A stretch of DNA of 64,000 nucleotides, from the NCBI RefSeq assembly GCF_003584015.1, contig NZ_QXFM01000145.1, positions 1-64,000 on the forward strand, read 5' to 3'. The notes under the pieces are model-generated. The model was given only the letters and a program-made list of their open reading frames with translations. It did no database searches and was not told where the DNA came from. Positions 14,757 through 61,536 of this stretch are shown piece after piece (positions within the stretch are counted from its first letter, which is position 1; every line of letters begins with the position of its first letter). This DNA is from Aurantiacibacter xanthus (lineage in GTDB: Bacteria > Pseudomonadota > Alphaproteobacteria > Sphingomonadales > Sphingomonadaceae). Both the position numbers and the translations under genes were made by a program.

Positions 14757-14771
14757 GAACATATATGGAAC
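14757..14771. promoter_or_regulatory. LexA (SOS) box, GAAC-N7-GAAC
   Basis: GAACATATATGGAAC is an exact match to the alphaproteobacterial LexA site. It lies 72 bases upstream of the XRE regulator and 263 bases upstream of traA. Confidence 0.75.
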
Positions 14772-14949
14772 ATCTCGTTTCTAGGCGAATCACTCCCTAG
14801 GCTCGAGTCGTCGACAATCGCCGCCACTCCTGTCGAGATTCGTCGACGCTGATTACGAGATAAACCGCTGTTTCTGCGTATTATCGCCGACAGCAACCAT
14901 TCGATGCGTCCATATCCGTCCGCCGCATCAGCTCGAGAGGCGTTCCGAC

Positions 14950-14971
14950 TTTCCTACATCGAATTCCTAGA
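14950..14971 (+). promoter_or_regulatory. Tandem TTTCCTA(C/G)A operator-like sites ahead of traA
   Basis: TTTCCTACAT is followed directly by ATCGAATTCCTAGA. The latter matches ATCGAATTTCCTAGA in the S24 repressor promoter (38575-38589) except for one T. I infer a shared operator for the element's repressor. Confidence 0.55.
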
Positions 14972-15033
14972 TGCATGTGGAACACACAGCGAACGAGAGA
15001 ACGCTGGGTTCACCCCTCCAGATGGAGCTCCAT

Positions 15034-15378
15034 ATGCAGTCTTTCACCCTCTCCCGGCGCTCCGGCGCCATCGACCAGCGCCCCTCGAAGTTCGGGCGAG
15101 CCATGACCTTCGCGGTACCGCTTGCGGTCGCAGCACTGGCCGCAAGCGCCGCCTACGCGGGCGCCGACACGACCTTCACCCCTGCCCTCACGAAATTCAC
15201 CGATTTCCTCGAAGGCTCGGGCGGCAAGATCATCACCGTCCTCAGCCTTGCAGGCGGCCTCATCGGTCTCGCTTCGGGCCGGTTCTCGCTCGGGCAGGTC
15301 GCTGTTCCGGTCGGTGTCGGCATCGGTGTCGGCACGGGTGTTCCGATCGTCACCTCGGTCGTCACCGCGGTCATCTGA
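15034..15378 (+). CDS. traA: F-type conjugative pilin TraA
   Basis: This 114-aa propilin has a basic, long leader and a hydrophobic segment ending in AASAAYAGAD, where leader peptidase would cut. The mature part has two hydrophobic helices (IITVLSLAGGLIGLASGRF and VAVPVGVGIGVGTGVPIVTSVV). That size and double-helix layout are typical of F-type TraA/VirB2 pilins, which polymerise into the conjugative pilus. The ATG at 15034 has GGAG ahead. It is the first gene of the tra operon, immediately upstream of traL, in the usual place for F-like systems. Confidence 0.9.
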   Translation: MQSFTLSRRSGAIDQRPSKFGRAMTFAVPLAVAALAASAAYAGADTTFTPALTKFTDFLEGSGGKIITVLSLAGGLIGLASGRFSLGQVAVPVGVGIGVGTGVPIVTSVVTAVI

Positions 15379-15404
15379 CGCATCGGACGGGAAGGCGCGT
15401 CGCC

Positions 15405-15692
15405 ATGACGGACCCATATATCATCCCGCGTCGGCTCGACGATCCGGAGCTCATCGGCTTCTGGACCATCGACGAGTTCTGCGGGATGCTCATCCCCTTC
15501 ACCTGGGGGATCCTCAGCCAGCATATCTTTATCGGCATCATCGTTGCCTTCGGCGCCTGGTTCTCGCTGCGAAAGGCAAAAGCAGGACGCGCCAGCTCCT
15601 GGGTAGCCCATGCCGCCTATTGGTATCTGCCGGCCGGATTGTTGGGCCTGAAATCGACGCCGCCTTCCCACTGCCGCCTGCTTGCCGGTTGA
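15405..15692 (+). CDS. traL: T4SS protein TraL
   Basis: The 95-aa product begins with YIIPRRLDDPELIGFWTIDE, the standard TraL opening. Two hydrophobic segments follow (IPFTWGILSQHIFIGIIVAFGAWF and the AYWYLPAGLLGL region). TraL is a small inner-membrane part of F-type conjugation machines, related to VirB3. It lies between traA and traE as in F. The ATG at 15405 is chosen because the family begins a few residues before this motif. Confidence 0.92.
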   Translation: MTDPYIIPRRLDDPELIGFWTIDEFCGMLIPFTWGILSQHIFIGIIVAFGAWFSLRKAKAGRASSWVAHAAYWYLPAGLLGLKSTPPSHCRLLAG

Positions 15693-15704
15693 GGGGAGAT
15701 ATCC

Positions 15705-16277
15705 ATGTTTGCCGACATTTCACACGAGCGTCAGCAGTCGCTGCTGCGCCAGCGCAACCTCTTCGCGCTCACCAGCGCCGGGCTTGGCATTGCGCTCGTC
15801 GTCGCCGTCAGCCTTGCTGCCACCCGCGACCGCGAAGTCGTGCTCCTGCCGACACTCCCCAAGCAGCTCATCGTCAGCAGCGCGGGGGTCGAGGCCGACT
15901 ATCTCGAACTCGTGACCCGCGATGCCGCGCTCGTCTTGCTCAATCGCAGCCCCGAGGGCCTCGACTACTGGATGGCCGAAATCCTGAAGCTCGCCGATCC
16001 GGCAAGCTACGGTCGCCTCAAGGCCGATCTCGTCCGGATCGTCGAGGAACAGCGGGGCTCGGAACTTACCCAGGCCTTCGTCATCCGGTCGATGACCGTC
16101 GACCCCAAGGGGCTGACTTCCGATGTGACCGGCACGCTCAAGACCTTTGTCGGCGCCCAGGTCATCGCGAGCGACGAGCGCCGTTTCCGTTTCAACTGGA
16201 CCTACCGGGGCCTGCGTCTCGCGCTGTCAGGCTTCAGCCAGTTGCCCCCCAAAGACCCAACGAAGGAGGCCCAGTGA
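15705..16277 (+). CDS. traE: T4SS protein TraE
   Basis: The 190-aa product has a short cytoplasmic N terminus, one membrane segment (FALTSAGLGIALVVAVSLA) and a periplasmic domain. The domain includes the TraE pattern YLELVTRDAALVLLNRSPE and GTLKTFVGAQVI. TraE is the VirB8 counterpart in F-type systems and scaffolds the inner-membrane complex. Its stop overlaps the traK start by one base, with GGAGG inside its end serving traK. Confidence 0.93.
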   Translation: MFADISHERQQSLLRQRNLFALTSAGLGIALVVAVSLAATRDREVVLLPTLPKQLIVSSAGVEADYLELVTRDAALVLLNRSPEGLDYWMAEILKLADPASYGRLKADLVRIVEEQRGSELTQAFVIRSMTVDPKGLTSDVTGTLKTFVGAQVIASDERRFRFNWTYRGLRLALSGFSQLPPKDPTKEAQ

Positions 16278-17032
16278 TGGCTTACCGACGCAAGACGCGC
16301 GTATGGAGCCTGGCTCTTTGCGCCAGCACCATCCTCGCATTTTCCGGGAGCGGCGCTCAGGCCGCCGACCAGTTCAAACAGGCTGCAGACGGAGCGAGCA
16401 TCGAATGCGCCGTTTCGGCCCGCGAACTAACGCGCTTTGCGCTCGTCGACGACCAGTTTGCCAGCGTTTCGAAGATTTCGACCGGCACGCCCTACAACGA
16501 TTTTGCGGTCACCAACGAGCCGCTGCGCGGCGACATCTACGTATCGGTGCCCGAGACCTTTGCGGCCCGGTCAATCAGCTTCTTCGCCACGACCAAGAAG
16601 GGCTTCGTCTACAAGGTTTCCTGTCAGGTCGAGCCTGTTCCGGCAGTCCAGGTCTTCATCACCAACCCGGCGATCGCGACGAACAAGGCGGCAGGCTGGG
16701 AAAGCGAAACGCCGCTGGAGACGAGCGCATTACGCCTCATCCAGGCCATGGCCAATGACCGCACGGTCGATGGCTTCGAAGTCCGGCAATCCTCAGCTCT
16801 TCCGGCACGGGTCGGCGACCTCGAGGTCCAGCTCATTGCTGATTACCGCGGCAGCGCGCTTGCCGGGAAGGTCATCCGTCTGGCGAACCGTGGCCGCAAA
16901 CCGCTGACGCTTGCCGAAGCGGATCTCGCGTCGTCCGGGACCCTTGCCATCTCAATCGCCCAGCCAACTCTCCAATCGGGCGAGAGCACCGTCGCCTTCA
17001 TCGTCGGCACGAACGGGGAGATCGGTCAATGA
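16277..17032 (+). CDS. traK: T4SS secretin-like protein TraK
   Basis: The 251-aa product has a signal peptide ending at GAQAADQF. The mature protein shows TraK features: ISFFATTKKGFVYKVSCQVEPVPAVQVFITNP in the middle and repeated beta-strand segments. TraK is the VirB9 counterpart and forms the outer-membrane core with TraB and TraV. GGAGG lies ahead of the ATG, and the gene ends in a four-base ATGA overlap with traB. Confidence 0.92.
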   Translation: MAYRRKTRVWSLALCASTILAFSGSGAQAADQFKQAADGASIECAVSARELTRFALVDDQFASVSKISTGTPYNDFAVTNEPLRGDIYVSVPETFAARSISFFATTKKGFVYKVSCQVEPVPAVQVFITNPAIATNKAAGWESETPLETSALRLIQAMANDRTVDGFEVRQSSALPARVGDLEVQLIADYRGSALAGKVIRLANRGRKPLTLAEADLASSGTLAISIAQPTLQSGESTVAFIVGTNGEIGQ

Positions 17033-18363
17033 GCGACACAGCCATCCCCTCGACCCCGGTTCAAGCCGACCCCGCATCGCCTTCGCCAGTCACTAGCCTC
17101 AACGCCAAGACCGCGCGGCGGCAGAAGCTTCTGCTTGGCTCCTTGGGCGCGCTCGCGCTTATTGGCGGTAGCTGGTTCATCCTGGGAGGCGACGACGGCG
17201 CGAAGAGCGACGATCCCACCGCCGCCCAGACCATCGACACGGCGGGACTCATCAATCGCGACCTTTCGCAGCGCGAATTCGTCGCGACCTACGGCAATCG
17301 TCTCGATGCCGTGACCCGCGAGCAGAAGGCGATGAAGGACGCGAGCCTCCCGCGTGAGGAAATCGAAGCCCAGCTCGCCGCCCTCAAGGCCGAGAACCAG
17401 GCCATGCACGTTGACGGCCAGGCCGCGATCGATGCGATCTCCGCCGAGAACGCGGATCTGAAGGCGCGCCTTGCCAGCCAGAGCACCTCGGCTCCCCCGA
17501 GCGTGCCGCCGCCGGCCTATGGCCCGCAAGCTGGCGGCTATGACGCGCGCGGCCGGACGGCCCCGTCAACGCTCGGCGGCGCGCCGGTGGGGGCCGGTGA
17601 AGCTGCAATGCCCGGGCCAGGCGAAGTCAAGCTGATGAGCTTCACGTCGGACAAAGCCGGGGCAAGTGGTCCAAGGTTTGCGCGTCCCGAAACCCCGCCG
17701 GTCGTGATCGAGGATTCACCGGACTATCTGCCGCCCAATTCCTATGCCTCGGCGCGCGTCATCGTTGGCGTCGATGCATCGGCCGGTGTCGCGAGCCAGA
17801 CCGATCCGCTTCCGGTTGTCCTGCGCATCACGGGCCCAGCGCGATCAGTCATGCAGAACGGCAAGGTTCTGACGACCCGCATCCAGGGCTGTATCGTCAA
17901 TGGCGCGGCGCGCGGCGATCTCTCTTCGGAGAAAGTCTACGTGAAGTTGGCCCGGATGACCTGCGATCAGCCCGGCGGGCGCGTCGCGGTGAGCGAGGTC
18001 AAAGGCTTCATCAGCTTCGCCGGAAAATCCGGTGTGCGTGGCCGTGTCGTCAGCCGCGAGGGCAGCCTTGTGAGCCAGGCCCTGCTTGCCGGGATCGTGG
18101 GCGGTTTCGGGCGCGGCTTTTCGGCGAACGCCAACAGCGTCTTCTCCGGCGTCACGACCAATGCCGATGGCACCCGCTCGAAGCTCTCTGCCGGCGACAT
18201 CCTCGGCGGTGGGCTCGGCCAGGGCGCTGCGGATGCCGCCGATACGGTCAGCAAATATCTGATCGAGCGCGCCGAACAATACCAACCCGTCGTCGAGATG
18301 CCGACCGGCATCGATGTCGAGATCGTCTTCCTCGACGGCGTCTACGTGAGGAACTCCCAATGA
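17029..18363 (+). CDS. traB: T4SS core protein TraB
   Basis: The 444-aa product has a membrane anchor near residues 26-48 (LLLGSLGALALIGGSWFIL) and a coiled coil near 85-145 (EEIEAQLAALKAENQ). A proline-rich stretch (APPSVPPPAYGP) follows. The C-terminal TraB/VirB10 domain includes GCIVNGAARGDLSSEKVYVKL and a glycine-rich antenna region. TraB links inner and outer membranes. It overlaps both neighbours by four bases. Confidence 0.95.
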   Translation: MSDTAIPSTPVQADPASPSPVTSLNAKTARRQKLLLGSLGALALIGGSWFILGGDDGAKSDDPTAAQTIDTAGLINRDLSQREFVATYGNRLDAVTREQKAMKDASLPREEIEAQLAALKAENQAMHVDGQAAIDAISAENADLKARLASQSTSAPPSVPPPAYGPQAGGYDARGRTAPSTLGGAPVGAGEAAMPGPGEVKLMSFTSDKAGASGPRFARPETPPVVIEDSPDYLPPNSYASARVIVGVDASAGVASQTDPLPVVLRITGPARSVMQNGKVLTTRIQGCIVNGAARGDLSSEKVYVKLARMTCDQPGGRVAVSEVKGFISFAGKSGVRGRVVSREGSLVSQALLAGIVGGFGRGFSANANSVFSGVTTNADGTRSKLSAGDILGGGLGQGAADAADTVSKYLIERAEQYQPVVEMPTGIDVEIVFLDGVYVRNSQ

Positions 18364-19250
18364 CCCCCGCCACAAACGATCCAACCCCCACCAAGCCGCG
18401 GCGCTGGCTGCGACCGGTGGCGACCGTTGCTGCCGTCGTCGCCCTGTCAGCCGCAACGGGTTGGGGCGTGGCCAGCCTCGCTTCCCCGGCCCAGGCTCCC
18501 GACACGGCAAAAGTGCGCGACGCGCTCAAGCTGCGCCTCCCGAAGACGCCGATCGACGCCATCACCTGCGATGGCCTTGGCGGCCTGTGCGAAGTCGCCT
18601 CGAAATCGACGCTGTTCTACGTCGATCGCGCGGCGAAGTATCTGGTGATCGGGCGCATCTACGACATGGAGGCGCGGCAAGACCTGACGGCAGCCCGTCT
18701 CCTCGCACTCAACCCAGACTTGCTGGCTGCTGGTGCTGCACGGCGGAGCAATGCCGGCGAAGAAAGCCAGCCCGCCCCGCGCGCCACCCCGCAGAACGTA
18801 TCGCTCGCCGGCCTGCCCGCGAACGGCGCGATCACCTGGGGACCGGTGAACGGCCCCAAGGTCGTCGTCTTCTCCGATTTCCACTGCGGCTACTGCAAGA
18901 AGCTCGAAGCCGAACTGAAGGCGATCGGTGCGCGCGTCGAGGAGCGGCCCATTTCGATCTTCGGGGCCGACAGCCGCCGTGATGCCGAACGGGTGCTGTG
19001 TTCGCCGCGCCCCGAGGTGTCGCTGCACATGGCCTATTCGGGTCTCGCCCTCGCCAATCCGAAGCCCTGCGACACGAGCGGGCTCGATGCCAACGAAGCC
19101 TTCGCCAAGGCCCATGGCTTCAACGGGACGCCGGTCATCGTGCGCCCGTCCGATGGCGCGATCCTCGAAGGCTATCGCCCCGCTTCCGTGCTCCGCGAAT
19201 TTCTCACGCCCGCCAAAGCGGCCGCGCCCGCTTCGGCCAAGAAAGGATAA
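18360..19250 (+). CDS. DsbC-like thiol:disulfide interchange protein
   Basis: The 296-aa product has a signal/anchor near residues 20-42, a DsbC-type N-terminal dimerisation region (TPIDAITCDGLGGLCEVASKS) and a thioredoxin-fold domain with CGYC near residues 176-179. The cis-proline loop is in GFNGTPVIVRP. It should isomerise disulfides in the periplasm. Cysteine-rich TraU, TraN and TraH made by the same operon are the likely clients. F-like plasmids encode a DsbC homologue in their tra regions for the same purpose. Start overlaps traB as ATGA. Confidence 0.93.
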   Translation: MTPATNDPTPTKPRRWLRPVATVAAVVALSAATGWGVASLASPAQAPDTAKVRDALKLRLPKTPIDAITCDGLGGLCEVASKSTLFYVDRAAKYLVIGRIYDMEARQDLTAARLLALNPDLLAAGAARRSNAGEESQPAPRATPQNVSLAGLPANGAITWGPVNGPKVVVFSDFHCGYCKKLEAELKAIGARVEERPISIFGADSRRDAERVLCSPRPEVSLHMAYSGLALANPKPCDTSGLDANEAFAKAHGFNGTPVIVRPSDGAILEGYRPASVLREFLTPAKAAAPASAKKG

Positions 19251-19255
19251 TCGTC

Positions 19256-20011
19256 ATGCGATTTCCCCACCGTATTCTCGCCTCTGCCTGCCTTGCTCTG
19301 CTGACAAGCGCGTGCGCGACTTTCGGCACCAACATCGAAGGCGATTTCACCTGCCGAGCCCCCAAAGGCGACTGCGCGCCCAGCCATGTCATCGACGCCC
19401 GCGCAACCGGTGACATGACCGCAACCGGCTCGCTGGAGAACGACTATCCTGCGACCGTCCCGGTTGCTGCCGGTGATCAGGCCCGGACGTCCGAGCGAAC
19501 GCTCAGGATCGTGTTTCCGGCCCATGTTGATGAGACCGGGACGCTGCACGATGATGCGGTCGCCTGGGCAGTCGTCGAAAATCCGCGTTGGGCCGCAGAA
19601 CTGCGCCGCAAGGTTGGTGAGGACACCGCCCCGCCGCTGATGCGCCAGCTGCGCCGCAAGCTCAAAGCCGTACAGGCACAGACCGAGGAATCGGGCGAAA
19701 CGCATCAAGGTGTCGCCGCCGAGCAGCCTGCCAAACAGCCCGAAGCCGAGACGTTCGATCTCGGACAGCCCTTTCAACCTTCATCCTCACTCGAGGACAC
19801 CCCCTCTGCCTCGCCGCTGGTCCTCCCCTCCACGGCGCGCGAGGCCGTTGCCGGAGCGAAAGCCCCGGCGGTCGAGGGGTTCGACATGGCGCAGCCCCCG
19901 CATGATCGAGCCCCTCGGCCTTCTGCCGACAAGGCCCCGCTGATCTTCCCGACCATCGAGGCAATCGAGGCCGCGAAGAACGCCGCTCAGGCACAGAAGG
20001 AGCCCAAGTGA
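19256..20011 (+). CDS. traV: T4SS lipoprotein TraV
   Basis: The 251-aa product starts with a lipoprotein signal (ACLALLTSAC; LTSAC is the lipobox, Cys20). The conserved NIEGDFTCRAPKGDC motif of TraV follows directly. The remaining two thirds are low-complexity, proline- and alanine-rich, which is longer than F TraV (about 170 aa). TraV is the VirB7 counterpart, anchored in the outer membrane. The ATG at 19256 is the natural start, five bases after the dsbC-like stop. The A of its TGA stop is the A of the traC ATG. Confidence 0.92.
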   Translation: MRFPHRILASACLALLTSACATFGTNIEGDFTCRAPKGDCAPSHVIDARATGDMTATGSLENDYPATVPVAAGDQARTSERTLRIVFPAHVDETGTLHDDAVAWAVVENPRWAAELRRKVGEDTAPPLMRQLRRKLKAVQAQTEESGETHQGVAAEQPAKQPEAETFDLGQPFQPSSSLEDTPSASPLVLPSTAREAVAGAKAPAVEGFDMAQPPHDRAPRPSADKAPLIFPTIEAIEAAKNAAQAQKEPK

Positions 20012-22557
20012 TGGCCGAGAAACTGAAGACGATTGTCGACCGGCTCCTCACCGGACTTCTGGGCGATGCCGAACATGCCGAGCAGAGCCGCCCTGCCCTG
20101 ATGCTCGATCTGCTGTCGGACTGGCTCCCTTACCGGGTCTATGATCCGGCGAGCCGGCTCTATTTCAACGCGCGATCAAAGGGCTTTGTCCTTGCTGTCA
20201 CGCCGTTGATCGGTGCCGATGAGCGTACCGGCGAGATCCTTGGATCGTTCTTCTCCGAGGGCCTGCCACCCGGGGCCTGCCTCCAGGTGCTGCATCTCGC
20301 GTCTCCGCGCATCAGCCGGATCGTCGCTCCCTGGTTTGCGCCGCGCTATGTCCAGGGCGGCGTCTACGAGGCGATTGCCCGCCACCGCGCGCGTCGGCTT
20401 TACGGCCTCGTCTGGGAATCGGGTTCGCAGGACGCGCCGTTCCATGCGCGGCATCATCAGGTGATCGTTTCGGTCGGCGTGCCCGCTGCCAAAGCGGTGA
20501 GCAACGAGGATCTCAAGCAGACGCGCGACGGCCTCATCGCGATGCTGAAGTCGCTCAATCTGGGCGTTGCCGAAGTCGAGCCGCAGCAGCTGATTGCGAT
20601 CATCGACGACCTGACCTCGCCGACGACCGCGCCGCAGGACGACGCTGTGCCCTATAATCCCAATGACGCGATCGCGGCGCAGGCGATCCGCCACGATATC
20701 GAACTCGTCATCCTGGAAGACCGGATGCGGCTCGTCACCGAGCGGTTTCGGGCAACGGGCAAGGTTGACGATGGGGTTCCTGAGATCGGCACGGTCTACC
20801 CCGACGCCTTCGATGTGCGGCATTTTTCCTCGCGCAACATGCCCCAGCGCTGGGCGCCGTGGGAGTGCGCGCGGCTCATCGGCGACATGTTCACCGACAA
20901 GCTGCGTTTCCCCTGCCCGGCCGCGACGATGCTGTGCCTCGTCTATCCTGACCAAGAGGCCGCTTCGGCCAAGGCCGGCTTCAAGTTCATGCGTACCACC
21001 AGCCTTGCGGGAACGCGCAGCGCACGGTTCCTGCCGCGGATCGGCGAGCAGGCCGCCGAATGGCAGCACGTCCAGTCCGAGCTGCAGGAGGGTCGCCGCC
21101 TCGTGCGGGTCTTCTATGGCCTGACGACCTATTCGCCGCTCGGCCGCGGTGACCGGGACGAACGCGCGATCAAGTCGATCTACAAGGCGGCAGGCTGGGA
21201 CCTTGCCGACGAGCGCTACCTGCAAATCCAGGGTCTGCTGGCAGCCATGCCGATGACGCTGGCCGACGGGCTTGGCGCCGACATGGAGCGTCTCAAGCGC
21301 TTCAAGACCGTGCTCTCGACCACCGCCGCCAATATCGCGCCGATGCAGGGCGAATATCTTGGCAGCGTCCATCCGCATCTCCTGTTCGTGGGCCGGCGCG
21401 GCCAGCCCTTCTTCTGGTCGCCATTCGAGAACGAGGCCGGCAACCACAATGTCGCGATCTGCGGCAAGTCGGGCTCGGGCAAGTCGGTGCTGCTTCAGGA
21501 GATGTGCGCGGCGCTGCGCGGTGCGGGCGCGCAGGTCGTCGTCATCGACGACGGCCGCAGCTTCGAGCATTCGGTAAAGCTTCAGGGTGGCCGGTTCGTC
21601 GAGTTCACCATGAAGGCAGGCTTCTGTCTCAACCCGTTCTCGATGATTGATGGCGAGCGGGCAGCCGAAGACGAGGATTACCGGCTCGACTGCTTCGGCA
21701 TGGTCAAGGCCATTGTTGGCCAGATGGCGCGGCACAGCGCGCAGCTCAACGATACCGAGCGCGGCCTGATCGACCGTGCGGTCAACATGGTCTGGAGCGA
21801 CCAAGGCGTAGCAGCCTCGATCACTGGCGTCGGCGAAGCGCTGACCGGTCTTGGCAACGAGACAGCGAGCGATCTTGCGACCGCGCTCGCGCCCTACATG
21901 GCAGGCGGTACTTATGGCGCCTTCTTCGAAGGCCAGGCAAGCCTCGATCTCGACACCGACTTCACCGTCTTCGAAATGTCCGATCTCGCCACGCGCGAAG
22001 AACTGCGCGCGGTCGTGCTCTCGGCGATCATGTTCATGACCAGCCAGGCCATGACCCGCAGCCCGCGTTCGGTGAGGAAACTGCTCTTGATCGACGAGGC
22101 CTGGTCGATGCTCAAGGGCGGCTCGATGGGTGAGTTCGTCGAGACCTACGCCCGCACCTGCCGCAAATATGGCGGGGCGCTGGCGACCGCCACGCAGTCG
22201 CTCAACGACTATTACAAGTCGGACGGTGCGACCGCTGCGCTGGAAAACAGCGACTGGATGCTGATCCTTCAACAGAAGCCCGAGACGATCGCCGATTTCA
22301 AGGCGTCGAAGCGGCTCGACATGGATGATCGCACCGAGACCCTGATCCGCAGCCTGAAGCGCTCGGGCAGCGACTATTCCGAAGTCTTCATCAAGGGACC
22401 GGAAACCGAAGCCATCGGCCGGCTCGTGCTCGACGACTATTCAGCGACGCTGTTCTCGAGCTCTCCCCAGACCTTTGCCGCGATCGATGCCGAGATCGCG
22501 CGCGGCCATCAGCTTGCAGACGCGATCGAACTGATCGCCTTTGCCAATCGAACCTGA
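20011..22557 (+). CDS. traC: T4SS ATPase TraC
   Basis: This 848-aa ATPase is the VirB4 counterpart. Walker A is GKSGSGKS near residues 485-492, and Walker B is LLLIDEAW near 691-698. An RMxxxTQSLNDYY-like motif (ATATQSLNDYYKS) follows. The N-terminal TraC domain (residues 20-300) includes DWLPYRVYDPASRLYFN. It powers pilus assembly at the inner membrane. AGAAGGAG precedes the ATG at 20011; a GTG one codon earlier would also read but is less likely. Confidence 0.96.
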   Translation: MAEKLKTIVDRLLTGLLGDAEHAEQSRPALMLDLLSDWLPYRVYDPASRLYFNARSKGFVLAVTPLIGADERTGEILGSFFSEGLPPGACLQVLHLASPRISRIVAPWFAPRYVQGGVYEAIARHRARRLYGLVWESGSQDAPFHARHHQVIVSVGVPAAKAVSNEDLKQTRDGLIAMLKSLNLGVAEVEPQQLIAIIDDLTSPTTAPQDDAVPYNPNDAIAAQAIRHDIELVILEDRMRLVTERFRATGKVDDGVPEIGTVYPDAFDVRHFSSRNMPQRWAPWECARLIGDMFTDKLRFPCPAATMLCLVYPDQEAASAKAGFKFMRTTSLAGTRSARFLPRIGEQAAEWQHVQSELQEGRRLVRVFYGLTTYSPLGRGDRDERAIKSIYKAAGWDLADERYLQIQGLLAAMPMTLADGLGADMERLKRFKTVLSTTAANIAPMQGEYLGSVHPHLLFVGRRGQPFFWSPFENEAGNHNVAICGKSGSGKSVLLQEMCAALRGAGAQVVVIDDGRSFEHSVKLQGGRFVEFTMKAGFCLNPFSMIDGERAAEDEDYRLDCFGMVKAIVGQMARHSAQLNDTERGLIDRAVNMVWSDQGVAASITGVGEALTGLGNETASDLATALAPYMAGGTYGAFFEGQASLDLDTDFTVFEMSDLATREELRAVVLSAIMFMTSQAMTRSPRSVRKLLLIDEAWSMLKGGSMGEFVETYARTCRKYGGALATATQSLNDYYKSDGATAALENSDWMLILQQKPETIADFKASKRLDMDDRTETLIRSLKRSGSDYSEVFIKGPETEAIGRLVLDDYSATLFSSSPQTFAAIDAEIARGHQLADAIELIAFANRT

Positions 22558-22589
22558 CTTCTCCCTCCATCCAAGGACACCCAGAACCG

Positions 22590-22985
22590 ATGCCACTCCA
22601 TCTCGTCACGCCGATCGACCAGGCCGAGGACGCCCGTGCCGACAGCGACAGCCTCGACCTGCCCGCCAAGGGCTGGCGCTCGCATGCCGCCGACCTCTGC
22701 TACATCGTGCTTCGCGGCAGCACCTTCCTCGCCTCGAGCTACCTCATGGCGCTCGGGCTCCCGCTGCTCTTCTTCCTTCTGATCTCGGGCGGCGATGCCG
22801 GGGTTTTCTTTGCGCATCTCGCCAATATTTCGGACCGGTTCCTCGGCGCCGAGCAAGGCCGCCAGATCGGATTCCTCGACGAGTTCAAGTTCGTCCTCAT
22901 CGGTGTCGCGACGCTCGTCGTGGTCTGGCGCCTGCCGCGCTTCATCAACGATCTCGAGCGCGAACTCTCGGGAGAAAAGCTGTGA
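22590..22985 (+). CDS. Uncharacterised inner-membrane protein in the tra operon
   Basis: The 131-aa product has two strong hydrophobic segments (SSYLMALGLPLLFFLLISGG and KFVLIGVATLVVVWRLP) and short charged ends. I do not recognise it as any F plasmid protein. Its place between traC and trbI is where F has trbI, traW and smaller genes, so it is probably a lineage-specific accessory of the envelope complex. Its stop overlaps the GTG of trbI. A conserved neighbour in related elements would support a role in transfer. Confidence 0.85.
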   Translation: MPLHLVTPIDQAEDARADSDSLDLPAKGWRSHAADLCYIVLRGSTFLASSYLMALGLPLLFFLLISGGDAGVFFAHLANISDRFLGAEQGRQIGFLDEFKFVLIGVATLVVVWRLPRFINDLERELSGEKL

Positions 22986-23389
22986 AGAACATATTGGCAA
23001 CACAGTCCCTGCGCGGCCGCATGGGTGCGGTGAACTGGACCGCCGTCGCGCTCGGTTTGAGCATGGTCGGCTCGGCGCTCTGGGGCGTCTGGGCGACCGA
23101 CAAGCTGCTCGCGCTCGACAAGCGCGACGTGGTGACCGTGCAGCTGAGCCGTATCATGGGCGACTTCATCGAAGCCGAGGCGCGCGCAGGCCGACCGCCT
23201 GAAGAAACCAAGATGCGCGTCCAGGCCTACCTCCAGGCGGTCGAAGCCTCCGTCGAACATCTCGGCCGCGAGGGCCGCACAGTGCTTGTCGCCGAAGCGG
23301 TGGTGGCCGGCAGCACGCCTGATCTCACCGAAGCCGTGCGCGCCGATGTCGCTCGCCGCGTGGGAGCCATTCCCGATGCGCGCCGCTGA
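22982..23389 (+). CDS. trbI: TrbI-like conjugal transfer protein
   Basis: The 135-aa product has one N-terminal membrane segment (WTAVALGLSMVGSALWGVWA) and a periplasmic part with VVTVQLSRIMGDFIEAEAR, which fits the F-type TrbI family. TrbI affects pilus extension and retraction in F. The start is GTG at 22982, overlapping the previous stop. Longer in-frame starts would run through the preceding gene. Confidence 0.85.
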   Translation: MKNILATQSLRGRMGAVNWTAVALGLSMVGSALWGVWATDKLLALDKRDVVTVQLSRIMGDFIEAEARAGRPPEETKMRVQAYLQAVEASVEHLGREGRTVLVAEAVVAGSTPDLTEAVRADVARRVGAIPDARR

Positions 23390-23900
23390 TCTTGTCCTCC
23401 ACTCGCCAACCGGGCGGCGCCTCGCGTTGTGGACAGGGCTTGGCGCGGCCGCGCTCGCGCTCACCTCGCTCGCCGCCTTCTCGAAGGACCACGCGCTGAT
23501 GATCAACGCCAGTCCGAGCCTGCCTTACTGGGCGATCTGGCTCGATCGCGGCGCGCTGCCCCAGCGCGGCGAGATCATCCTGTTCGATCCGCCCGCCTCG
23601 CCGCTGCTCGAAAGGCACTTCGGCAAGAAGCCCAAGCCGTTCGGCAAGAAGGTGAGCGGCATGCCCGGCGATGTCGTGATCGAGAAGGATCGCAGCTTCT
23701 TTGTCAATGGCCGCAAGGTCGCGGTAGCCAAGCGGGCAAGCCGTTTCGGCGAGCCGCTGGCGCTCGGTCCGACAGGCGTGGTGCCTCAAGGCTGCTATTT
23801 CGTCAGCACCGCGCACAAGGACGGTTTCGACAGCCGCTATGCGGCAATCGGGTGGATCTGCGCCAAGCGCATTCTCGGGGTCGGGAGGCCGATCCTGTGA
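23376..23900 (+). CDS. S26-family signal peptidase (TraF/TrhF type)
   Basis: The 174-aa product has an N-terminal membrane anchor and the S26 catalytic motifs. The serine lies in NASPSLPYWAIW and the lysine block is KKVSGMPGDVV. A C-terminal STAHKDGFDSRY box matches the S26 S-x-DSR-x-G region. Such peptidases in F-like and IncH systems mature the pilin. TraA, encoded first in this operon, is the probable substrate. The ATG at 23376 has GGAG nine bases ahead and overlaps the trbI end by 14 bases. Confidence 0.92.
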   Translation: MRAADLVLHSPTGRRLALWTGLGAAALALTSLAAFSKDHALMINASPSLPYWAIWLDRGALPQRGEIILFDPPASPLLERHFGKKPKPFGKKVSGMPGDVVIEKDRSFFVNGRKVAVAKRASRFGEPLALGPTGVVPQGCYFVSTAHKDGFDSRYAAIGWICAKRILGVGRPIL

Positions 23901-24541
23901 CACCGCTGCGCGCCGCCCCATTCCTCGTAGCCGGTCTTCTTTTGGCCGCGCCGGCAAGCGCCCGCGACTACGGCCAGCAAGGCACGGTCTGGTCGGTGAT
24001 CGAGCCTGACCTGCTCGAGCAAATCCATGCGCGTCTCACCCATCTCGAGAAGACCGGCGAGACGGCCAAGCTCAATGAGGAGCTGAAGCGGCGCACGATC
24101 GCGCGCGTCAACCGCCCCGAGCCAGTCGCGGGGATGAACGCCGCAGCGGCAGCACGCAGCTGGCGTTTCGATCCGACGATCAGCGTCGAGCGTGACATTG
24201 CCGATGACAAGGGACGGGTGATCGTTGCGGCCGGGACCCGGGTCAATCCGCTCGACACCGTGCCGCTGCGGGTGCCGCTGGTCTTTCTCGATGGCGATGA
24301 TCCCAAGCAGCTTGCCTGGGCGACCCGGCGCTATGCCAGCACCAAGGCCAAGCTCATCCTCGTGCGCGGTGCACCGCTGGAACTCATGAAGGCCCGCCAG
24401 CGCCGCTTCTATTTCGACCAAGGCGGCAGCCTCGTGAAGCACTTCGGCATCCGCGCCGTGCCCGCCACGGTCGAGCAGCAGGGCCGCATCCTCATCATCA
24501 CCGAGCAGCCTGTCCGGCCCAAGGAGCGCGCACCGTCATGA
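23897..24541 (+). CDS. traW: T4SS periplasmic protein TraW
   Basis: The 214-aa product has a signal peptide ending in APASARD. The standard TraW opening DYGQQGTVWSVIEPDLLEQI follows, then the SWRFDPTISVERDIAD region. TraW is a periplasmic protein of F-type systems acting with TrbC and TraU in pilus assembly. The start is GTG at 23897, overlapping the peptidase stop, and the end overlaps traU as ATGA. Confidence 0.94.
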   Translation: MTPLRAAPFLVAGLLLAAPASARDYGQQGTVWSVIEPDLLEQIHARLTHLEKTGETAKLNEELKRRTIARVNRPEPVAGMNAAAAARSWRFDPTISVERDIADDKGRVIVAAGTRVNPLDTVPLRVPLVFLDGDDPKQLAWATRRYASTKAKLILVRGAPLELMKARQRRFYFDQGGSLVKHFGIRAVPATVEQQGRILIITEQPVRPKERAPS

Positions 24542-25566
24542 GAACAAAGTCTCCCCTATCTACATGGCTATGCAGTGCGATCTTCTTTCTCGGTCTCATG
24601 CTCGCTGCGGCTGCGCCCGCACAGGCATCGGCAGGCCCGGGCCGCTGCACGGGCAAGTTCGTCAATCCGATCACCGACATCTGCTGGTCGTGCCTGTTTC
24701 CGATCTCGATCGGCGGCCTGAAGATCTGGCCCTCGAGCCGACCCGATACGAGCAACCCGGCGCTTCCCGTTTGCCTCTGCGGATTGCGGCCGGGCATCGC
24801 CATGGGCTTCTGGGAGCCGGTGCGGCTTGCCGACGTCAGCATGAAGCCCTGGTGCTTCGTCAATCTCGGCGGGATGAAGCTCGATCCGGGATTCGACATC
24901 GGCTTCAAGTCGATGGCGGGACCTTCGGCCGTCGGCGGCGCGACGCAGTACAATTCGCAGTGGCATGTCCACTGGTATGCCTATCCGCTGATCTACTGGA
25001 TGGAGATCGTTGCCGATTTCCTGTGCCTGGAACAGGGCTCGGTCGACATCCTCTATATCACCGAGATCGATCCGCTCTGGCAGGACAGCGAGCTCACCGC
25101 GATCATCAATCCCGAAGCGGTGCTCTTCGCCAATCCCTTGGCGCTTGCGGCCTGCGCGGCCGATTGCGTGGCGGCAACGGCCAAGCTGCCGACCGATGAA
25201 CTGTTCTGGTGTGCCGGATGCCAGGGCAGCATGTATCCCTTGAACGGCAATGTCTCGGCGACGATCGGGCACGTCCAGGCATCGCGGCTCGCCCTCGCCC
25301 GCTTCTCTTACAAGCTGCACCGCGAACTCGTCGCCTGGGGCACGATGGGCAGCAAGGGGCTCTGCGGCAAGTATCTGATGCCGGTGATGAGGAAGCAGCA
25401 GTACCGCTTCCAGGCCACCAATCCCAATCCGCAGACCAAGGGCCGCTACGCCTGCGCGCCTATTGGCGCCTCCACCACCTTTATGTCGGCAGGTCAGGTC
25501 TATCCCGCCATCGGCGAGGACATGGGCTATCTGGTCTGGCGCAAACGGAACTGCTGTGCGCTATGA
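24538..25566 (+). CDS. traU: T4SS periplasmic protein TraU
   Basis: The 342-aa product has a signal peptide ending near ASAGPGRC and many cysteines. It carries the conserved TraU block TDICWSCLFPISIGG, then CLCGLRPGIAMGFWEP. TraU is needed for DNA transfer in F and depends on disulfide formation, consistent with the DsbC- and TraF-type proteins encoded nearby. Overlaps trbC by four bases. Confidence 0.96.
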   Translation: MRTKSPLSTWLCSAIFFLGLMLAAAAPAQASAGPGRCTGKFVNPITDICWSCLFPISIGGLKIWPSSRPDTSNPALPVCLCGLRPGIAMGFWEPVRLADVSMKPWCFVNLGGMKLDPGFDIGFKSMAGPSAVGGATQYNSQWHVHWYAYPLIYWMEIVADFLCLEQGSVDILYITEIDPLWQDSELTAIINPEAVLFANPLALAACAADCVAATAKLPTDELFWCAGCQGSMYPLNGNVSATIGHVQASRLALARFSYKLHRELVAWGTMGSKGLCGKYLMPVMRKQQYRFQATNPNPQTKGRYACAPIGASTTFMSAGQVYPAIGEDMGYLVWRKRNCCAL

Positions 25567-26327
25567 AGATATTTCCTCATCTCCTTGTAATCGCGTCGAT
25601 CACTGGCACTGCCATCATGGCAGGGGCTGCGGCGCAAACGAGCGAACCAGAGATCGACCTGGAGGACATCCGTGCGCGCGCCAAAGTCGAGGCGAGCGAA
25701 GCCGATGCGCTGGCTGCCAATGCCCGCACCCGGGCCGAAGCGATGCTCAGGCAAGCCAATGACAGCGCGGCGGCAGCCGAGGCCCATGGCAGACGCTACA
25801 CCGAGCAGTCCGCCCAGTCCGCCAAGTCGAACAGCGAGGATGTTTTCGATTTCGACAAGATGGTCGCCGATGCGGGGACCATGGCCAGCGAGAACCTGGG
25901 TGAAGCGCCGCGCTTCATCGCTTTTGCCTCGCTCTCCATGCCGCCGGCTGCCTTGCGGGCCATGGCGGACGATGTCGCCAAGGCTGGCGGCGTCGTTGTG
26001 CTGCGCGGCCTGCCGGGTGGCAGCGCCAAGATCCTTACGGCTGCGCTGGCGAAAATCGCCGATGACGGCGGGGCGCTCGACGCAGTCGGCATCGACCCGC
26101 GCCTGTTCCGCGCATTCGGGATCGAGGCGGTGCCCACTTATGTCGTGACCAGCAGCGATTTCGACCTGTGCGATGGCTTCGATTGCCGGACGCAGGTTCC
26201 GTCTCACGACCGGATGAGTGGCAATGTCAGCGTGTCCTATGCGCTCGAAACCTTCGCGCAGGGCGGCGGCCCCGGCGCGCTGCTCGCTTCCCAGCACCTT
26301 TCCCGCTTGCAGCGGAGTACACAATGA
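25563..26327 (+). CDS. trbC: T4SS periplasmic protein TrbC
   Basis: The 254-aa product has a signal peptide, then an alanine-rich helical region (residues 30-95). The TrbC domain follows, with FIAFASLSMPPAALRAMADD, VVLRGLPGG and FGIEAVPTYVV, a thioredoxin-like fold. TrbC interacts with TraW and TraU in F pilus assembly. The ATG at 25563 overlaps the traU stop, and its own TGA overlaps the traN start. Confidence 0.93.
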   Translation: MKIFPHLLVIASITGTAIMAGAAAQTSEPEIDLEDIRARAKVEASEADALAANARTRAEAMLRQANDSAAAAEAHGRRYTEQSAQSAKSNSEDVFDFDKMVADAGTMASENLGEAPRFIAFASLSMPPAALRAMADDVAKAGGVVVLRGLPGGSAKILTAALAKIADDGGALDAVGIDPRLFRAFGIEAVPTYVVTSSDFDLCDGFDCRTQVPSHDRMSGNVSVSYALETFAQGGGPGALLASQHLSRLQRSTQ

Positions 26328-28027
26328 AGCGGCTTCTCCTCCCCCTGCTATGCCTCGCCTGCGCATCCCTTTCGTCAGGTGCTTTGGCCCAGACCACGAC
26401 CGAGGCCGCCAAAGCCGACGGCAAGGCCTTCGGACGCGACAAGGCGGCCGACGCGCAAGGCGCGGCAACGACCGAACCGGACGCAAACCGGATACCCAAT
26501 TTCGGGAGCGTGCCCAGCCAGTCGGGCTATTTCGACGATCCCGACTGGATAGCGCGGGAAGCGGCAAGCCAGGCCACCGCAAATACCGGATACCGGACCA
26601 TGCGCGATTCCATGGATCGCCGAGCGCAGTTCGCGCCCCAGGACCTCGACGCGGTCGTCGCGCGCAGCAATATCATCAGCGATGATCCGCTCTCCTACAC
26701 GAGCGGGATGAGCATCAGCGGCAGCCAGAGTCGCTGCGTCCCTCTCCCTCCCGGAAGCGGCACGGCGGCGCGCTACATGGCGACCTGCAACGTTGGCTAT
26801 ACAGCGACGCAGGAAACGCGCAGCTGCGCTATCCCGCTGCGCGCCGCTGCACGAACGGTTACCGACTATCTCTATTACTGTCCGCGTTTCGATCCCGAAT
26901 GCACGATCTATGACCTCCCATATTGTCGGCGAAGCGGCAGTCATCCTGGACCGTGCTTGCAGGGTTACAAGGATGGCTGGGGCTTTCATTGCACCGAACC
27001 AGGTGATCCGATCGATGAATACACTTGCTCGCAAACCGTCGCGGGTCAGCGCATCATCCAAACGAGTTCCAGAATCGAATTCTCGACGAGCCGCGATGAA
27101 AGCCAATGCGCTGGCCTCGCCGCGGACAGTTCCTGCCAGCAGGACACCGAGACCTGCACCGACAGCGATCCGGTCACCCGGATCGTCGATGGCATCGCGG
27201 TCACCCAGCCTTGCTGGGCATGGGCTCGCAGCTACACCTGCGCCCAGTTCACCGAGGCGCAGGATTGCCAGACCCTCGAGAACACGTCCGGCTGCTCGCT
27301 CGTGCGCGAGGACTGCCTTTCGGGTGAGCCCTGTCGGACCTGGGAGCGGGTCTACGATTGCCCGGTCCCAGACCAGCCTGCCGATACCAGCCAGTTCATC
27401 TGCGACGGCGACGTCTATTGCATCGATGGCTCGTGCGAGACGATCGAGCGCGAGGCCAATGACGAGTTCAAGGATGCGGTTGTCGCGCTCAACGCGATGG
27501 ACCAGGCGCGGCGCGAGTTCGATCCTGACACACTCACCCTGTTCAGGGGCACGCGGAACACCTGCTCATCCAAAGTCTTCGGCGTGCTCAATTGCTGCAA
27601 GGGCAAGGGGTTTCCGCTGATCCCGGGCATCCAGCTGCTCGTTGCACTGGGCTGCAGCCGCGAAGAGATCCTGCTCCACCAACGCGATGCGCAGGGCCTG
27701 TGCGCCTATGTCGGGACCTATTGCTCGGACAGCTTCCTCGGCGTCTGCCTGACCAAGAAGAAGGTCTATTGCTGCTTTGAATCCAAGCTCTCACGGATTC
27801 TACAGGAACAGGGCCGCCAGCAGCTGAACAAGCCCTGGGGCAAGCCCAAGACCGAGCAATGCCTGGGCTTCACCATTGAAGAGTTTTCGCGGCTCGATCT
27901 CTCGAAGATGGATTTCAGCGAAGTCTACGCCGAGTTCACCGATGCTGCCCGCCTGCCCGACGAGCTTCAGGCCGCCACCGAAATCCAACAAAAAATCGAG
28001 GACTACTATGCCCGCGCCAGCCAATAA
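26324..28027 (+). CDS. traN: Mating-pair stabilisation protein TraN
   Basis: This 567-aa, cysteine-rich protein has a signal peptide ending in SGALAQ. The C-terminal TraN block includes FGVLNCCKGKGF and KKKVYCCFESKLSRILQEQGR. TraN sits in the donor outer membrane, and its central loops decide which recipient receptor is bound; here they are at roughly residues 140-330. I cannot infer the receptor. More than 30 cysteines imply dependence on the operon-encoded disulfide enzymes. Confidence 0.95.
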   Translation: MKRLLLPLLCLACASLSSGALAQTTTEAAKADGKAFGRDKAADAQGAATTEPDANRIPNFGSVPSQSGYFDDPDWIAREAASQATANTGYRTMRDSMDRRAQFAPQDLDAVVARSNIISDDPLSYTSGMSISGSQSRCVPLPPGSGTAARYMATCNVGYTATQETRSCAIPLRAAARTVTDYLYYCPRFDPECTIYDLPYCRRSGSHPGPCLQGYKDGWGFHCTEPGDPIDEYTCSQTVAGQRIIQTSSRIEFSTSRDESQCAGLAADSSCQQDTETCTDSDPVTRIVDGIAVTQPCWAWARSYTCAQFTEAQDCQTLENTSGCSLVREDCLSGEPCRTWERVYDCPVPDQPADTSQFICDGDVYCIDGSCETIEREANDEFKDAVVALNAMDQARREFDPDTLTLFRGTRNTCSSKVFGVLNCCKGKGFPLIPGIQLLVALGCSREEILLHQRDAQGLCAYVGTYCSDSFLGVCLTKKKVYCCFESKLSRILQEQGRQQLNKPWGKPKTEQCLGFTIEEFSRLDLSKMDFSEVYAEFTDAARLPDELQAATEIQQKIEDYYARASQ

Positions 28028-30270: not shown

Positions 30271-30309
30271 TCCCTTTCAGCGCGCCGAAAGCGGCGGGAG
30301 CCCAGCATC

Positions 30310-46216: not shown

Positions 46217-46650
46217 GCACGGACTCCTTGTGGTCAGGAGCCCGGAACGCACTGCGAAAGGCCTGGCTTGTCTAAATCAGAAATGAGAACATGTCAAGAA
46301 CATAGCGGAGCGCGGAATTGCGCCGTTTCGAGCCCCTGTTCATCCGAATATGATTGGCAGATGCAGGCCCATCCATTTCTGATTGAGAAGCTGCCATTTC
46401 GCAAAAATACTCTCAACTAACTGATATACCATGCTTTTTAACCCCATCCGAATGCGATTTGTCGCGTACGGTGTGCTCTTCCGTCCCCAGCTTAGAGGGT
46501 AGGTTCCAGTGTCATGACCAGCACGGGATCGGCGGTTTTGAAGTCCCAAAAGCAAGGGATGAATACCATGCCGCTCGATTGCCGATTGTGTTAAAGATCG
46601 ATCGAGTCCGCCAGCAGGAAGAATGGTATCGCGGGCATCCCACCAGGAGC
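46217..46650. promoter_or_regulatory. Control region ahead of the traD-traI operon, possible oriT
   Basis: A 434-base stretch without a gene. It carries the LexA box at 46287-46301 and AT-rich sequence near 46400-46445. It is the longest gap next to relaxase genes and is where I would expect oriT, but I could not identify a nic site by eye. Confidence 0.45.
46287..46301. promoter_or_regulatory. LexA (SOS) box, GAAC-N7-GAAC
   Basis: GAACATGTCAAGAAC is an exact match to the alphaproteobacterial LexA site. It is 71 bases upstream of the RHH gene that heads the traD-traI operon. Confidence 0.75.
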
Positions 46651-60428: not shown

Positions 60429-60531
60429 GAGAGACCTCCTGAAGAGGCCCTGGGTTTGTCCGGGTGTCCGTTCGGATGGATCCGCCCGGGGGCCTCACAA
60501 GGCCCCAAGCCCGCTTTCCTCTCACCGACAT

Positions 60532-61440
60532 TCAGACCGCAGCTCGGACTGAGCGCATGAGCACATCATTCCAGTCGTCGCCGGGTAGCTCCGGACGCCT
60601 GGTGACAATCAGCCGCCCTTCGCAAGCGTAGGCATCTCGCGCACGCTCTTCAGCAAGGTGCCCGCCCGCATCATTGTCGACAAAGAGATACAGCTGGTGC
60701 ACCGATTCCGGGATTGTGGCCAAGCCGAAGCGTTCGTTTCCTAGCGTCGCCCAGCAGGGAACCTTGAACATTTGCATCGCTGAGAGGGCCGTTTCGTTTC
60801 CCTCTGCGAGGCCAAGGCGTCCCCCATTCGGGTACGCGAAACGCACCGCCCCAGAACCGGGGCTGCCTAACGCACGCCTGGGCTGATCGAAAGAAGCCAA
60901 GCTGGTTTTGTCGAGGTCAAGGAAGGAGCGGTGCAGCGCCAGAATTCCGGCATCATTGCGCACGGCCGCCACCATCGCGGGTAGAAACCGGACAGCACCC
61001 TTTGGCCCCAGCGGCATATGCGGGTGGAAACGCAGCTCCGGCGAAGAAATCGTGATGCCTCTGGACACGAGGTACTTCTCGGCGGGGCTGCCAGCGATGG
61101 TCGACGCCTCACGCCAGAGCCTCAGCGCATTGCGATTGGCGACTTCCTCGCGCGGTTCGGCCACGATCGGACCACTCGTGCCATCGAACAGGTCCGCAAT
61201 TCGTATTCCGAGCCCGGCCATGGCTTCTAACACCGCCTCGTTCGTGCAGCCGGCAAAGCAATGAACAAGAATTGCGCGCTTTCCGAGTGTGATACTTAGC
61301 GAAGGAGTGCGGTCGTCGTGGGCCGGACAGCAGCACATTCCGCGCGAACGCGACCAGGCACCGCCCAGCTGCTCGACTATCTTGCGCGCGCGGGTTTCCA
61401 GTTGCAGACCTTGGAATTGGGATGATCGGTGTTGGTGCAT
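60532..61440 (-). CDS. TOPRIM/primase-like protein
   Basis: The 302-aa product has a zinc-ribbon-like N terminus (GMCCCPAHDDRTPSLSI, then HCFAGC), as in CHC2 primases. A DUF7146-like linker follows, then a TOPRIM domain with LAEGNETALSAMQMF and YLFVDNDAGG (the acidic metal sites). It should prime or process incoming DNA in the new host. ATG at 61440 follows GGAG at good spacing. An in-frame ATG at 61506 would run through the shared promoter region and is rejected. An exact LexA box lies 82 bases upstream. Confidence 0.9.
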   Translation of the reverse strand: MHQHRSSQFQGLQLETRARKIVEQLGGAWSRSRGMCCCPAHDDRTPSLSITLGKRAILVHCFAGCTNEAVLEAMAGLGIRIADLFDGTSGPIVAEPREEVANRNALRLWREASTIAGSPAEKYLVSRGITISSPELRFHPHMPLGPKGAVRFLPAMVAAVRNDAGILALHRSFLDLDKTSLASFDQPRRALGSPGSGAVRFAYPNGGRLGLAEGNETALSAMQMFKVPCWATLGNERFGLATIPESVHQLYLFVDNDAGGHLAEERARDAYACEGRLIVTRRPELPGDDWNDVLMRSVRAAV

Positions 61441-61500
61441 GGGGGCATCTCCATCGTAACGTGCCTCCACCCGCGCAGCCTCCGCTCTGCGTCGCTGACG

Positions 61501-61516
61501 TTTCATTTTCCTACAT
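61501..61516 (+). promoter_or_regulatory. TTTCATTTTCCTACAT motif, shared with the tra control region
   Basis: These 16 bases are identical to the reverse complement of 14740-14755. Both copies lie beside a LexA box, 50-70 bases ahead of a start codon. Confidence 0.6.
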
Positions 61517-61521
61517 CATAT

Positions 61522-61536
61522 GTTCTATATATGTTC
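61522..61536. promoter_or_regulatory. LexA (SOS) box, GTTC-N7-GTTC
   Basis: GTTCTATATATGTTC is an exact match to the alphaproteobacterial LexA site. It lies between the divergent TOPRIM and lytic transglycosylase genes, 32 bases from the latter's ATG. Confidence 0.75.

What the first reader, a model, noticed from the sequence alone, without database searches (positions are those of the whole stretch)
14757..61536. Four exact SOS boxes sit at the key promoters of the conjugative element
GTTC-N7-GTTC (or its complement) occurs at 14757, 38532, 46287 and 61522. These are respectively ahead of the XRE regulator/tra region, the S24 repressor switch, the RHH-traD-traI operon, and the divergent TOPRIM/lytic transglycosylase pair. 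Random sequence of this size would give about two copies anywhere. Here all four that I found lie in short intergenic regions, 26-86 bases from start codons, with AT-rich spacers. This would put DNA processing, mating and establishment genes under one damage-responsive regulon.
Basis: partly seen in the sequence, partly recalled or inferred. Interest (0 to 1): 0.88.

Follow-up and report, generated by a model that had tools for sequence, protein, structure and literature searches.

The report
DNA-damage switches on sphingomonad conjugative elements
A family of self-transferring DNA elements in sphingomonad bacteria carries what looks like the host's DNA-damage (SOS) control site at the promoters of its regulator, DNA-processing and helper genes, so DNA damage probably switches on its transfer; the idea is known, but this many-promoter layout appears to be a new variant.

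Summary
The four boxes are real and not chance. A matrix built only from host SOS sites ranks the four boxes plus one missed box (40475) as the five best sites in the 64 kb; all five are intergenic and the best coding site scores lower. At homologous promoters the exact box is kept in 75 of 83 (S24/small ORF), 28 of 32 (XRE), 34 of 35 (TOPRIM/transglycosylase), 48 of 53 (RHH-traD-traI) and 38 of 38 (ORF after traI) loci. The same box precedes recA in this genome and 30 carriers (31 of 31) and lexA in carriers (26 of 26 readable of 30). The element also encodes a CI/LexA-like S24 repressor whose presumed operators (TTTCCTA) lie beside several boxes. Best reading: transfer genes are held by host LexA and by the element's own repressor, and RecA activation inactivates both. 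Box 14980 (traA) is probable, 37974 unconserved, 8490 and 36745 coding chance hits. LexA binding and induction are untested, and lexA itself is missing from this assembly. A new variant of a known kind.

The parts
14757..14771 (-). SOS (LexA) box GTTCCATATATGTTC ahead of the XRE regulator and AlpA
   Evidence: exact match; host-matrix score 22.7, third best in window; kept in 28 of 32 homologous promoters
14740..14749 (-). TTTCCTACAT, presumed S24-repressor operator beside the box
   Evidence: TTCCTAC column identity 1.00 over 31 distinct promoters; binding protein inferred
14224..14685 (-). XRE-type regulator
   Evidence: HTH_31 match below its cut-off, on the ORF 14224-14700; phrog_4583 4.8e-4
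13923..14174 (-). AlpA, excisionase/regulator type
   Evidence: PF05930; phrog_2790
   Evidence: kept in 28 of 32 loci (counted), but spacer and flanks are conserved too; matrix score only 9.25
14950..14959 (+). TTTCCTACAT, presumed S24-repressor operator upstream of traA
   Evidence: binding protein inferred
15034..33012 (+). F-type mating-pair genes traA, L, E, K, B, V, C, U, trbC, N, F, H, G, probably one operon
   Evidence: Pfam TraL, TraK (on longer ORFs), TraE, TrbI, TraC_F_IV, TraU, TrbC_Ftype, F_T4SS_TraN, TraF, TraH, TraG_N, TrbC pilin; traV by position only
37974..37988 (+). weak intergenic box GTTCCTAGTGTGTTC, 50 bp ahead of a DNA methylase gene
   Evidence: score 11.3; no conserved counterpart among the loci held
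38333..38506 (-). small divergent ORF (57 aa, Cro-like in position only), box 25 bp before its start
   Evidence: homologs of 33-100% identity; box 15-35 bp before the start in every listed homolog that has one, none in L071, L076, L079, L080; no PHROG, NCBIfam or Pfam match at 0.01
38532..38546 (+). SOS box GTTCTTGTTATGTTC between the small ORF and S24
   Evidence: score 19.4; kept in 75 of 83 homologous promoters
38551..38590 (+). cluster of TAGGAA/TTCCTA half-sites, presumed autoregulatory operators of S24
   Evidence: TTCCTA or TAGGAA within 170 bp upstream in 80 of 83 S24 loci
38613..39257 (+). S24 (CI/LexA-like) repressor with Ala89-Gly90 site and Ser131/Lys169 dyad
   Evidence: PF00717 4.6e-18; phrog_4 repressor 1.3e-35; Ala and Gly in 83 of 84 aligned homologs (the other not covered there), Ser and Lys in 84 of 84
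40475..40489 (-).
   Evidence: best matrix score in the window, 23.7; kept in 38 of 38 loci while the spacer varies
40224..40472 (-). conserved small ORF after traI, function unknown
   Evidence: homologs at 65-100% identity; sub-threshold DUF6771
40536..43472 (-). TraI relaxase-helicase (TrwC type)
   Evidence: PF08751 2.6e-82
43510..45894 (-). TraD coupling protein
   Evidence: PF10412 3.9e-158 for the longer ORF 43510-46008; start from my gene caller
45884..46216 (-). ribbon-helix-helix protein, first gene before traD-traI
   Evidence: RHH_1, 21.6 bits against a cut-off of 20.5
46287..46301 (-). SOS box GTTCTTGACATGTTC; TTGACA inside it looks like a -35 element
   Evidence: score 18.3; kept in 48 of 53 promoters; the -35 reading is by eye, not found by the promoter scan
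60532..61506 (-). TOPRIM/DUF7146 primase-like gene; start at 61506 (ATG) or 61470 (GTG)
   Evidence: PF23639, PF13362
61507..61516 (+). TTTCCTACAT, presumed S24-repressor operator
   Evidence: GTAGGAA column identity 0.955 over 35 promoters; binding protein inferred
61522..61536 (+). SOS box GTTCTATATATGTTC in the divergent TOPRIM/transglycosylase promoter
   Evidence: score 23.1; kept in 34 of 35 loci
61568..62227 (+). lytic transglycosylase (SLT)
   Evidence: PF01464 6.1e-27 for the ORF 61520-62227

Best explanation
The window carries an F-type integrative conjugative element whose regulator, relaxase/coupling-protein, post-traI and TOPRIM/transglycosylase promoters, and probably the traA mating operon, each hold a binding site for the host's LexA repressor. 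The element also encodes an S24 repressor of the CI/LexA type, which probably binds TTTCCTA half-sites next to several of the same boxes. Without damage, LexA and S24 keep transfer silent. When RecA is activated on single-stranded DNA, both repressors cleave themselves, and the AlpA/XRE, mating, relaxase and helper genes come on together. Shown here: the sites, their rank, their conservation, the same box at host SOS genes, LexA in carriers, and the cleavage residues of S24. Inferred: LexA binding, S24 operator identity, repression, cleavage, and the rise in transfer.
For: Nine matches against 1.75 expected, with a clear N7 spacing peak. Matrix from host sites only: the top five sites of the window are 40475, 61522, 14757, 38532 and 46287, all intergenic, 18.3-23.7 bits; best coding site 15.7 bits. 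Conservation: S24 75/83, XRE 28/32, TOPRIM 34/35, RHH 48/53, post-traI 38/38, window included; in four of these five promoters the eight GTTC positions are more conserved than both spacer and flanks. Same box at recA in 31 of 31 loci and at lexA in 26 of 26 parsed of 30 loci; LexA over the family cut-off in 50 of 50 carriers. Boxes also stand before genes that I read as uvrA, imuA and dnaE2 in this genome. A second related element in the same genome has boxes at XRE, traA and S24. S24 cleavage residues conserved. GTTC-N7-GTTC as the alphaproteobacterial LexA motif is stated in PMC8565304 and PMC3323433 (passages).
Against: No binding or expression data. lexA itself was not found in this assembly, probably because a contig ends there. 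The traA box scores low and sits in a generally conserved stretch. The XRE box has lost its exact form in two close relatives (L123 at 99% and L132 at 93% protein identity) as well as L136 and L137. The RHH box is absent in the distant relatives L059-L062 and in this genome's second element, and in L038. Eight S24 homologs at 46-59% identity have no box. Loci are related by descent, many nearly identical, so the counts are not independent. No exact box stands beside the integrase, which looks frameshifted in this copy. In E. coli IncI1 and IncFII plasmids SOS level did not correlate with conjugation frequency, although mitomycin C raised both (PMC12211044, abstract).
Confidence: 0.76

Rival explanations
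1. The element's own S24 repressor, or another element-encoded regulator, binds the GTTC-N7-GTTC boxes; resemblance to host LexA sites is mimicry or shared ancestry, and host LexA plays little part.
For: S24 has a LexA/CI-type protease domain and a box lies upstream of it in 75 of 83 loci. lexA was not found in this assembly.
Against: Boxes and TTCCTA/TAGGAA sites are separable: the post-traI promoter has the box without them in 38 of 38 loci, RHH in 47 of the 48 loci with a box, and the second element's RHH promoter has TTTCCTAC and no box; 6 of the 8 box-less S24 homologs still have TTCCTA or TAGGAA upstream (L072 and L075 have not). The box matches the one before recA and lexA in carriers.
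Confidence: 0.13
2. The boxes are real LexA sites but act mainly on the regulatory switch and on small repair or helper genes; transfer itself is set by S24 or by growth signals, so SOS has little effect on conjugation. (Overlaps with the best reading on LexA binding, so the odds do not sum to one.)
For: Low-scoring traA box. Precedent of SOS-raised tra expression without more transfer for an E. coli plasmid (PMC12211044, abstract).
Against: The relaxase/coupling-protein promoter has a box in 48 of 53 loci, and S24 carries the RecA-type cleavage residues.
Confidence: 0.25
3. Chance matches in intergenic DNA.
For: Two of the nine matches (8490, 36745) and perhaps 37974 fit chance.
Against: Shuffles, spacing control, matrix ranking and conservation of the core.
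Confidence: 0.01

Closest known systems
SXT/R391 ICEs with SetR (PMC4542580, passages)
   Same: ICE with an S24 repressor of 215 aa with an Ala-Gly cleavage site, an operon with a Cro-like gene at the switch, and SOS-triggered transfer
   Different: There SOS acts through RecA-driven SetR cleavage, which frees setCD. Here LexA-type boxes sit directly on several structural and regulatory promoters. No SetCD search was made here.
SGI1 sgaDC (PMC9927553, passages)
   Same: Integrative element with LexA control of a promoter, with a gel shift of the sgaDC fragment
   Different: A LexA site on the master activator of an island mobilised by IncC plasmids, gammaproteobacterial motif; the second candidate promoter (sgiAT) did not bind. 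Here five or more promoters of an element with its own transfer genes, alphaproteobacterial motif.
CTX prophage rstR/LexA switch (named in a passage of PMC3323433; mechanism recalled)
   Same: LexA and a phage repressor share one switch region
   Different: A filamentous phage, not a conjugation system with several boxed promoters.
Alphaproteobacterial LexA regulon (PMC8565304, PMC3323433, passages)
   Same: GTTC-N7-GTTC box; here found at recA and lexA
   Different: Transfer genes of an ICE as regulon members were not seen in the listings (capped lists of open-licence papers).
phn island of Delftia acidovorans (PMC9960961, passage)
   Same: A catabolic ICE-like island said to encode a LexA-like protein
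   Different: Function stated there as unclear; no boxes described in the passage seen.

Membership tests
[quoted passage not shown]
   five strong and two weaker intergenic sites
Alphaproteobacterial LexA regulon | site conserved at orthologous promoters | tested here: met
   met for five promoters; 14980 less diagnostic; 37974 no counterpart found
Alphaproteobacterial LexA regulon | canonical LexA in the host | tested here: inconclusive
   50 of 50 carriers and 54 of the 61 genomes are over the cut-off; this genome is not, but the locus falls at a contig end
Alphaproteobacterial LexA regulon | LexA binding and SOS induction | not testable with these tools
   needs gel shift and expression
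F-type integrative conjugative element | F-type mating-pair genes, relaxase, coupling protein | tested here: met
F-type integrative conjugative element | intact site-specific integrase | tested here: inconclusive
   integrase domains present but in two reading frames
F-type integrative conjugative element | excision and transfer | not testable with these tools
   needs experiment
SetR-type SOS-cleavable repressor | S24 domain with Ala-Gly site and Ser/Lys dyad | tested here: met
SetR-type SOS-cleavable repressor | N-terminal helix-turn-helix domain | tested here: inconclusive
   no Pfam HTH match; phrog_4 repressor profile covers residues 12-213
SXT/R391 family | SetCD activator and SXT core genes | not tested
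   no dedicated search

The most novel reading that the evidence does not exclude
A two-repressor SOS lock built into a whole ICE family across Sphingomonadales: host LexA and the element's own RecA-cleavable S24 repressor hold the same promoters through adjacent but different operators, so all transfer modules open together only when RecA is active. The switch module (S24, box, small divergent ORF) is homologous to a resident chromosomal module that also carries the box, which suggests that the element and the chromosome share or exchanged their SOS switch.
Probability: 0.45. Interest if true: 0.7.

Novelty: new variant of a known kind. Interest (0 to 1): 0.57.

Why it matters
Sphingomonads are known for spreading pollutant-degradation genes on mobile elements (recalled, not tested here). 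If transfer is wired straight into the host SOS response at many promoters, genotoxic pollutants, UV and some antibiotics could directly speed up gene spread. It also gives a clear test of why an element would use both the host's repressor and its own.

Tried and rejected
Chance: rejected for the five strong sites, not for 8490 and 36745, undecided for 37974.

Element regulator as box binder: considered seriously because no canonical lexA was found in this assembly. The PF01726 hit (L120) reads, by eye, as a DNA-binding-domain protein among phage-like genes, not LexA. In a same-genus genome lexA lies beside genes that I read as moaC, moeA and comEC; here the moaC contig ends 62 bp after the match, and comEC gave no match (a search without a positive control), so I read it as an assembly gap, not proven.

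A sigma-70 scan of 38200-46600 found no promoter at the boxes; the -35 reading at 46287 is by eye. No PDB sequence relative of S24 at 0.01. Paper searches for LexA control of sphingomonad elements listed nothing relevant (one search listed 20 of 254).

Full report
Observation. GTTC-N7-GTTC has nine exact matches in the window, not four; 1.75 are expected and 0 of 100 shuffles reach nine. All four reported sites are there. Seven matches have T before the second GTTC (0.41 expected; 0 of 300 shuffles reach seven). The whole genome has 49 of that form against 8 for the reversed control pattern, and 7 of the 49 lie in this 64 kb of 4.38 Mb. Direct repeats at other spacings from 0 to 15 give 0-5 in the window; N7 gives nine. 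In the 80 loci (1.42 Mb) N7 gives 194 and the other spacings 37-108.

Matrix test. I built a weight matrix only from host sites: recA promoter boxes (down-weighted as a group), the uvrA, imuA and dnaE2 sites of this genome, and four lexA promoter boxes of relatives. The five best sites in the window are 40475 (23.7 bits), 61522 (23.1), 14757 (22.7), 38532 (19.4) and 46287 (18.3). All are intergenic, in a window that is 11% noncoding by my gene calls. The best coding site scores 15.7. The reversed matrix reaches 14.2 at best. The other four exact matches score 11.3 (37974), 11.1 (8490, coding), 10.0 (36745, coding) and 9.25 (14980), below several inexact coding sites.

Who reads the box. In this genome the box precedes genes that I read from their translations as recA, uvrA, imuA and dnaE2. 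Of the 42 GTTC-N6-T-GTTC sites outside the window, 12 lie inside called genes and 30 do not; of the seven in the window, none lies inside a called gene. recA has the box in 31 of 31 loci examined, this genome plus 30 of the 50 carrier genomes. Canonical lexA is over the family cut-off in 50 of 50 carriers, and its own promoter has the box in 26 of 26 loci that my script could parse, out of 30 fetched. In this assembly lexA was not found. In a same-genus genome lexA lies between genes read as moeA and comEC, after moaC; here the moaC contig ends 62 bp after the match and comEC gave no match. I read this as an assembly gap, not proven.

Conservation. Relatives of S24 came from 80 loci of named genomes, mostly Sphingomonadales genera by their titles; XRE and TOPRIM loci came from 50 of those genomes. 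Exact boxes at homologous promoters, the window and this genome's other copies included: S24/small ORF 75 of 83, XRE 28 of 32, TOPRIM/transglycosylase 34 of 35, RHH-traD-traI 48 of 53, ORF after traI 38 of 38. Mean column identity of the eight GTTC positions, spacer and flanks: S24 0.95/0.81/0.77, XRE 0.98/0.66/0.81, TOPRIM 1.00/0.92/0.72, RHH 0.91/0.97/0.61, post-traI 1.00/0.79/0.67. At RHH the spacer is TTGACAT, which looks like a -35 element. Losses: eight S24 homologs at 46-59% identity, four XRE promoters (two of them in close relatives), one TOPRIM promoter, and RHH in L059-L062 and L118 and in L038. The loci are related and not independent. The traA box is present in 28 of 32 loci (counted), but the surrounding stretch is conserved too, so this is weaker evidence. 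The methylase box has no counterpart among the loci held.

The element. Pfam shows an F-type mating apparatus, a TrwC-type relaxase, a TrwB/TraD coupling protein, AlpA, ParB, SSB and an integrase in two frames. S24 has Ala89-Gly90 and the Ser131/Lys169 dyad: Ala and Gly in 83 of 84 aligned homologs, the other not covered there, and Ser and Lys in 84 of 84. This is the arrangement by which LexA and CI-type repressors cleave themselves with RecA (family knowledge; SetR described in PMC4542580, passages).

A second operator. TTTCCTA-type half-sites lie beside the boxes at XRE, traA, S24 and TOPRIM, and without a box at 47447. TTCCTA or TAGGAA is found upstream of S24 in 80 of 83 loci, including 6 of the 8 without a GTTC box. 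The post-traI promoter has the box and no such site in 38 of 38 loci, RHH in 47 of the 48 loci with a box, and the second element's RHH promoter has TTTCCTAC and no box. So two proteins are likely involved: host LexA on GTTC-N7-GTTC and, by inference, S24 on TTTCCTA.

Mechanism. Best reading: double repression that is released by one signal, RecA on single-stranded DNA. The box between S24 and the small divergent ORF lies 25 bp from the ORF's start and is kept at 15-35 bp in every listed homolog with a box, so the ORF is the likelier target there. A module on contig 7 of this genome has the same parts: an S24 homolog at 47% identity, a box and a related small ORF.

Known and new. SOS induction of ICEs through a cleaved repressor is known (SXT; PMC4542580 passages). 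Direct LexA control is known for the SGI1 sgaDC promoter (PMC9927553 passages). I saw no report of LexA sites spread over several transfer promoters of one ICE, or of this family, in the listings of searches; those cover only open-licence PMC papers and long lists were capped, so absence is not shown. PMC12211044 (abstract and passages) is a caution: SOS level and conjugation were uncorrelated for the plasmids studied. Verdict: real, well conserved, a new variant of a known kind; function untested.

Noticed in passing
contig C137 of the same genome (L115, L116, L118): A second, diverged element of the same family with boxes at XRE, traA and S24; its RHH promoter has TTTCCTAC instead of a GTTC box.
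   Followed up: partly
contig C7 of the same genome (L081, L215): Module of S24 homolog, GTTC box and small ORF beside genes that look chromosomal by eye; low-scoring S24-type hits that may be its orthologs occur in 30 of 36 same-genus genomes (counted from the list; orthology untested).
   Followed up: partly
62453-63705: Integrase split over two reading frames, so either a frameshift mutation or a sequence error.
   Followed up: no
about 63880-63925, and L212 beyond window position 64000: By eye, a tRNA 3'-end-like stretch just outside the integrase, then a run of genes that read like a trb/VirB-type transfer system, suggesting two elements in tandem; ARAGORN found no full tRNA.
   Followed up: no
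33583-37923: DNA methylase and ResIII helicase pair, possibly a type III restriction-modification cargo; the methylase has the weak box 37974.
   Followed up: partly
1-13800: Cargo that looks like a biosynthetic cluster: an adenylation/NRPS-like gene, two P450-like genes and a Rieske-like oxygenase by eye, and a phosphopantetheinyl transferase by Pfam.
   Followed up: no
47447-47455: TTTTCCTACATGG without a GTTC box shortly before a DUF6437 gene, a candidate S24-only target.
   Followed up: no
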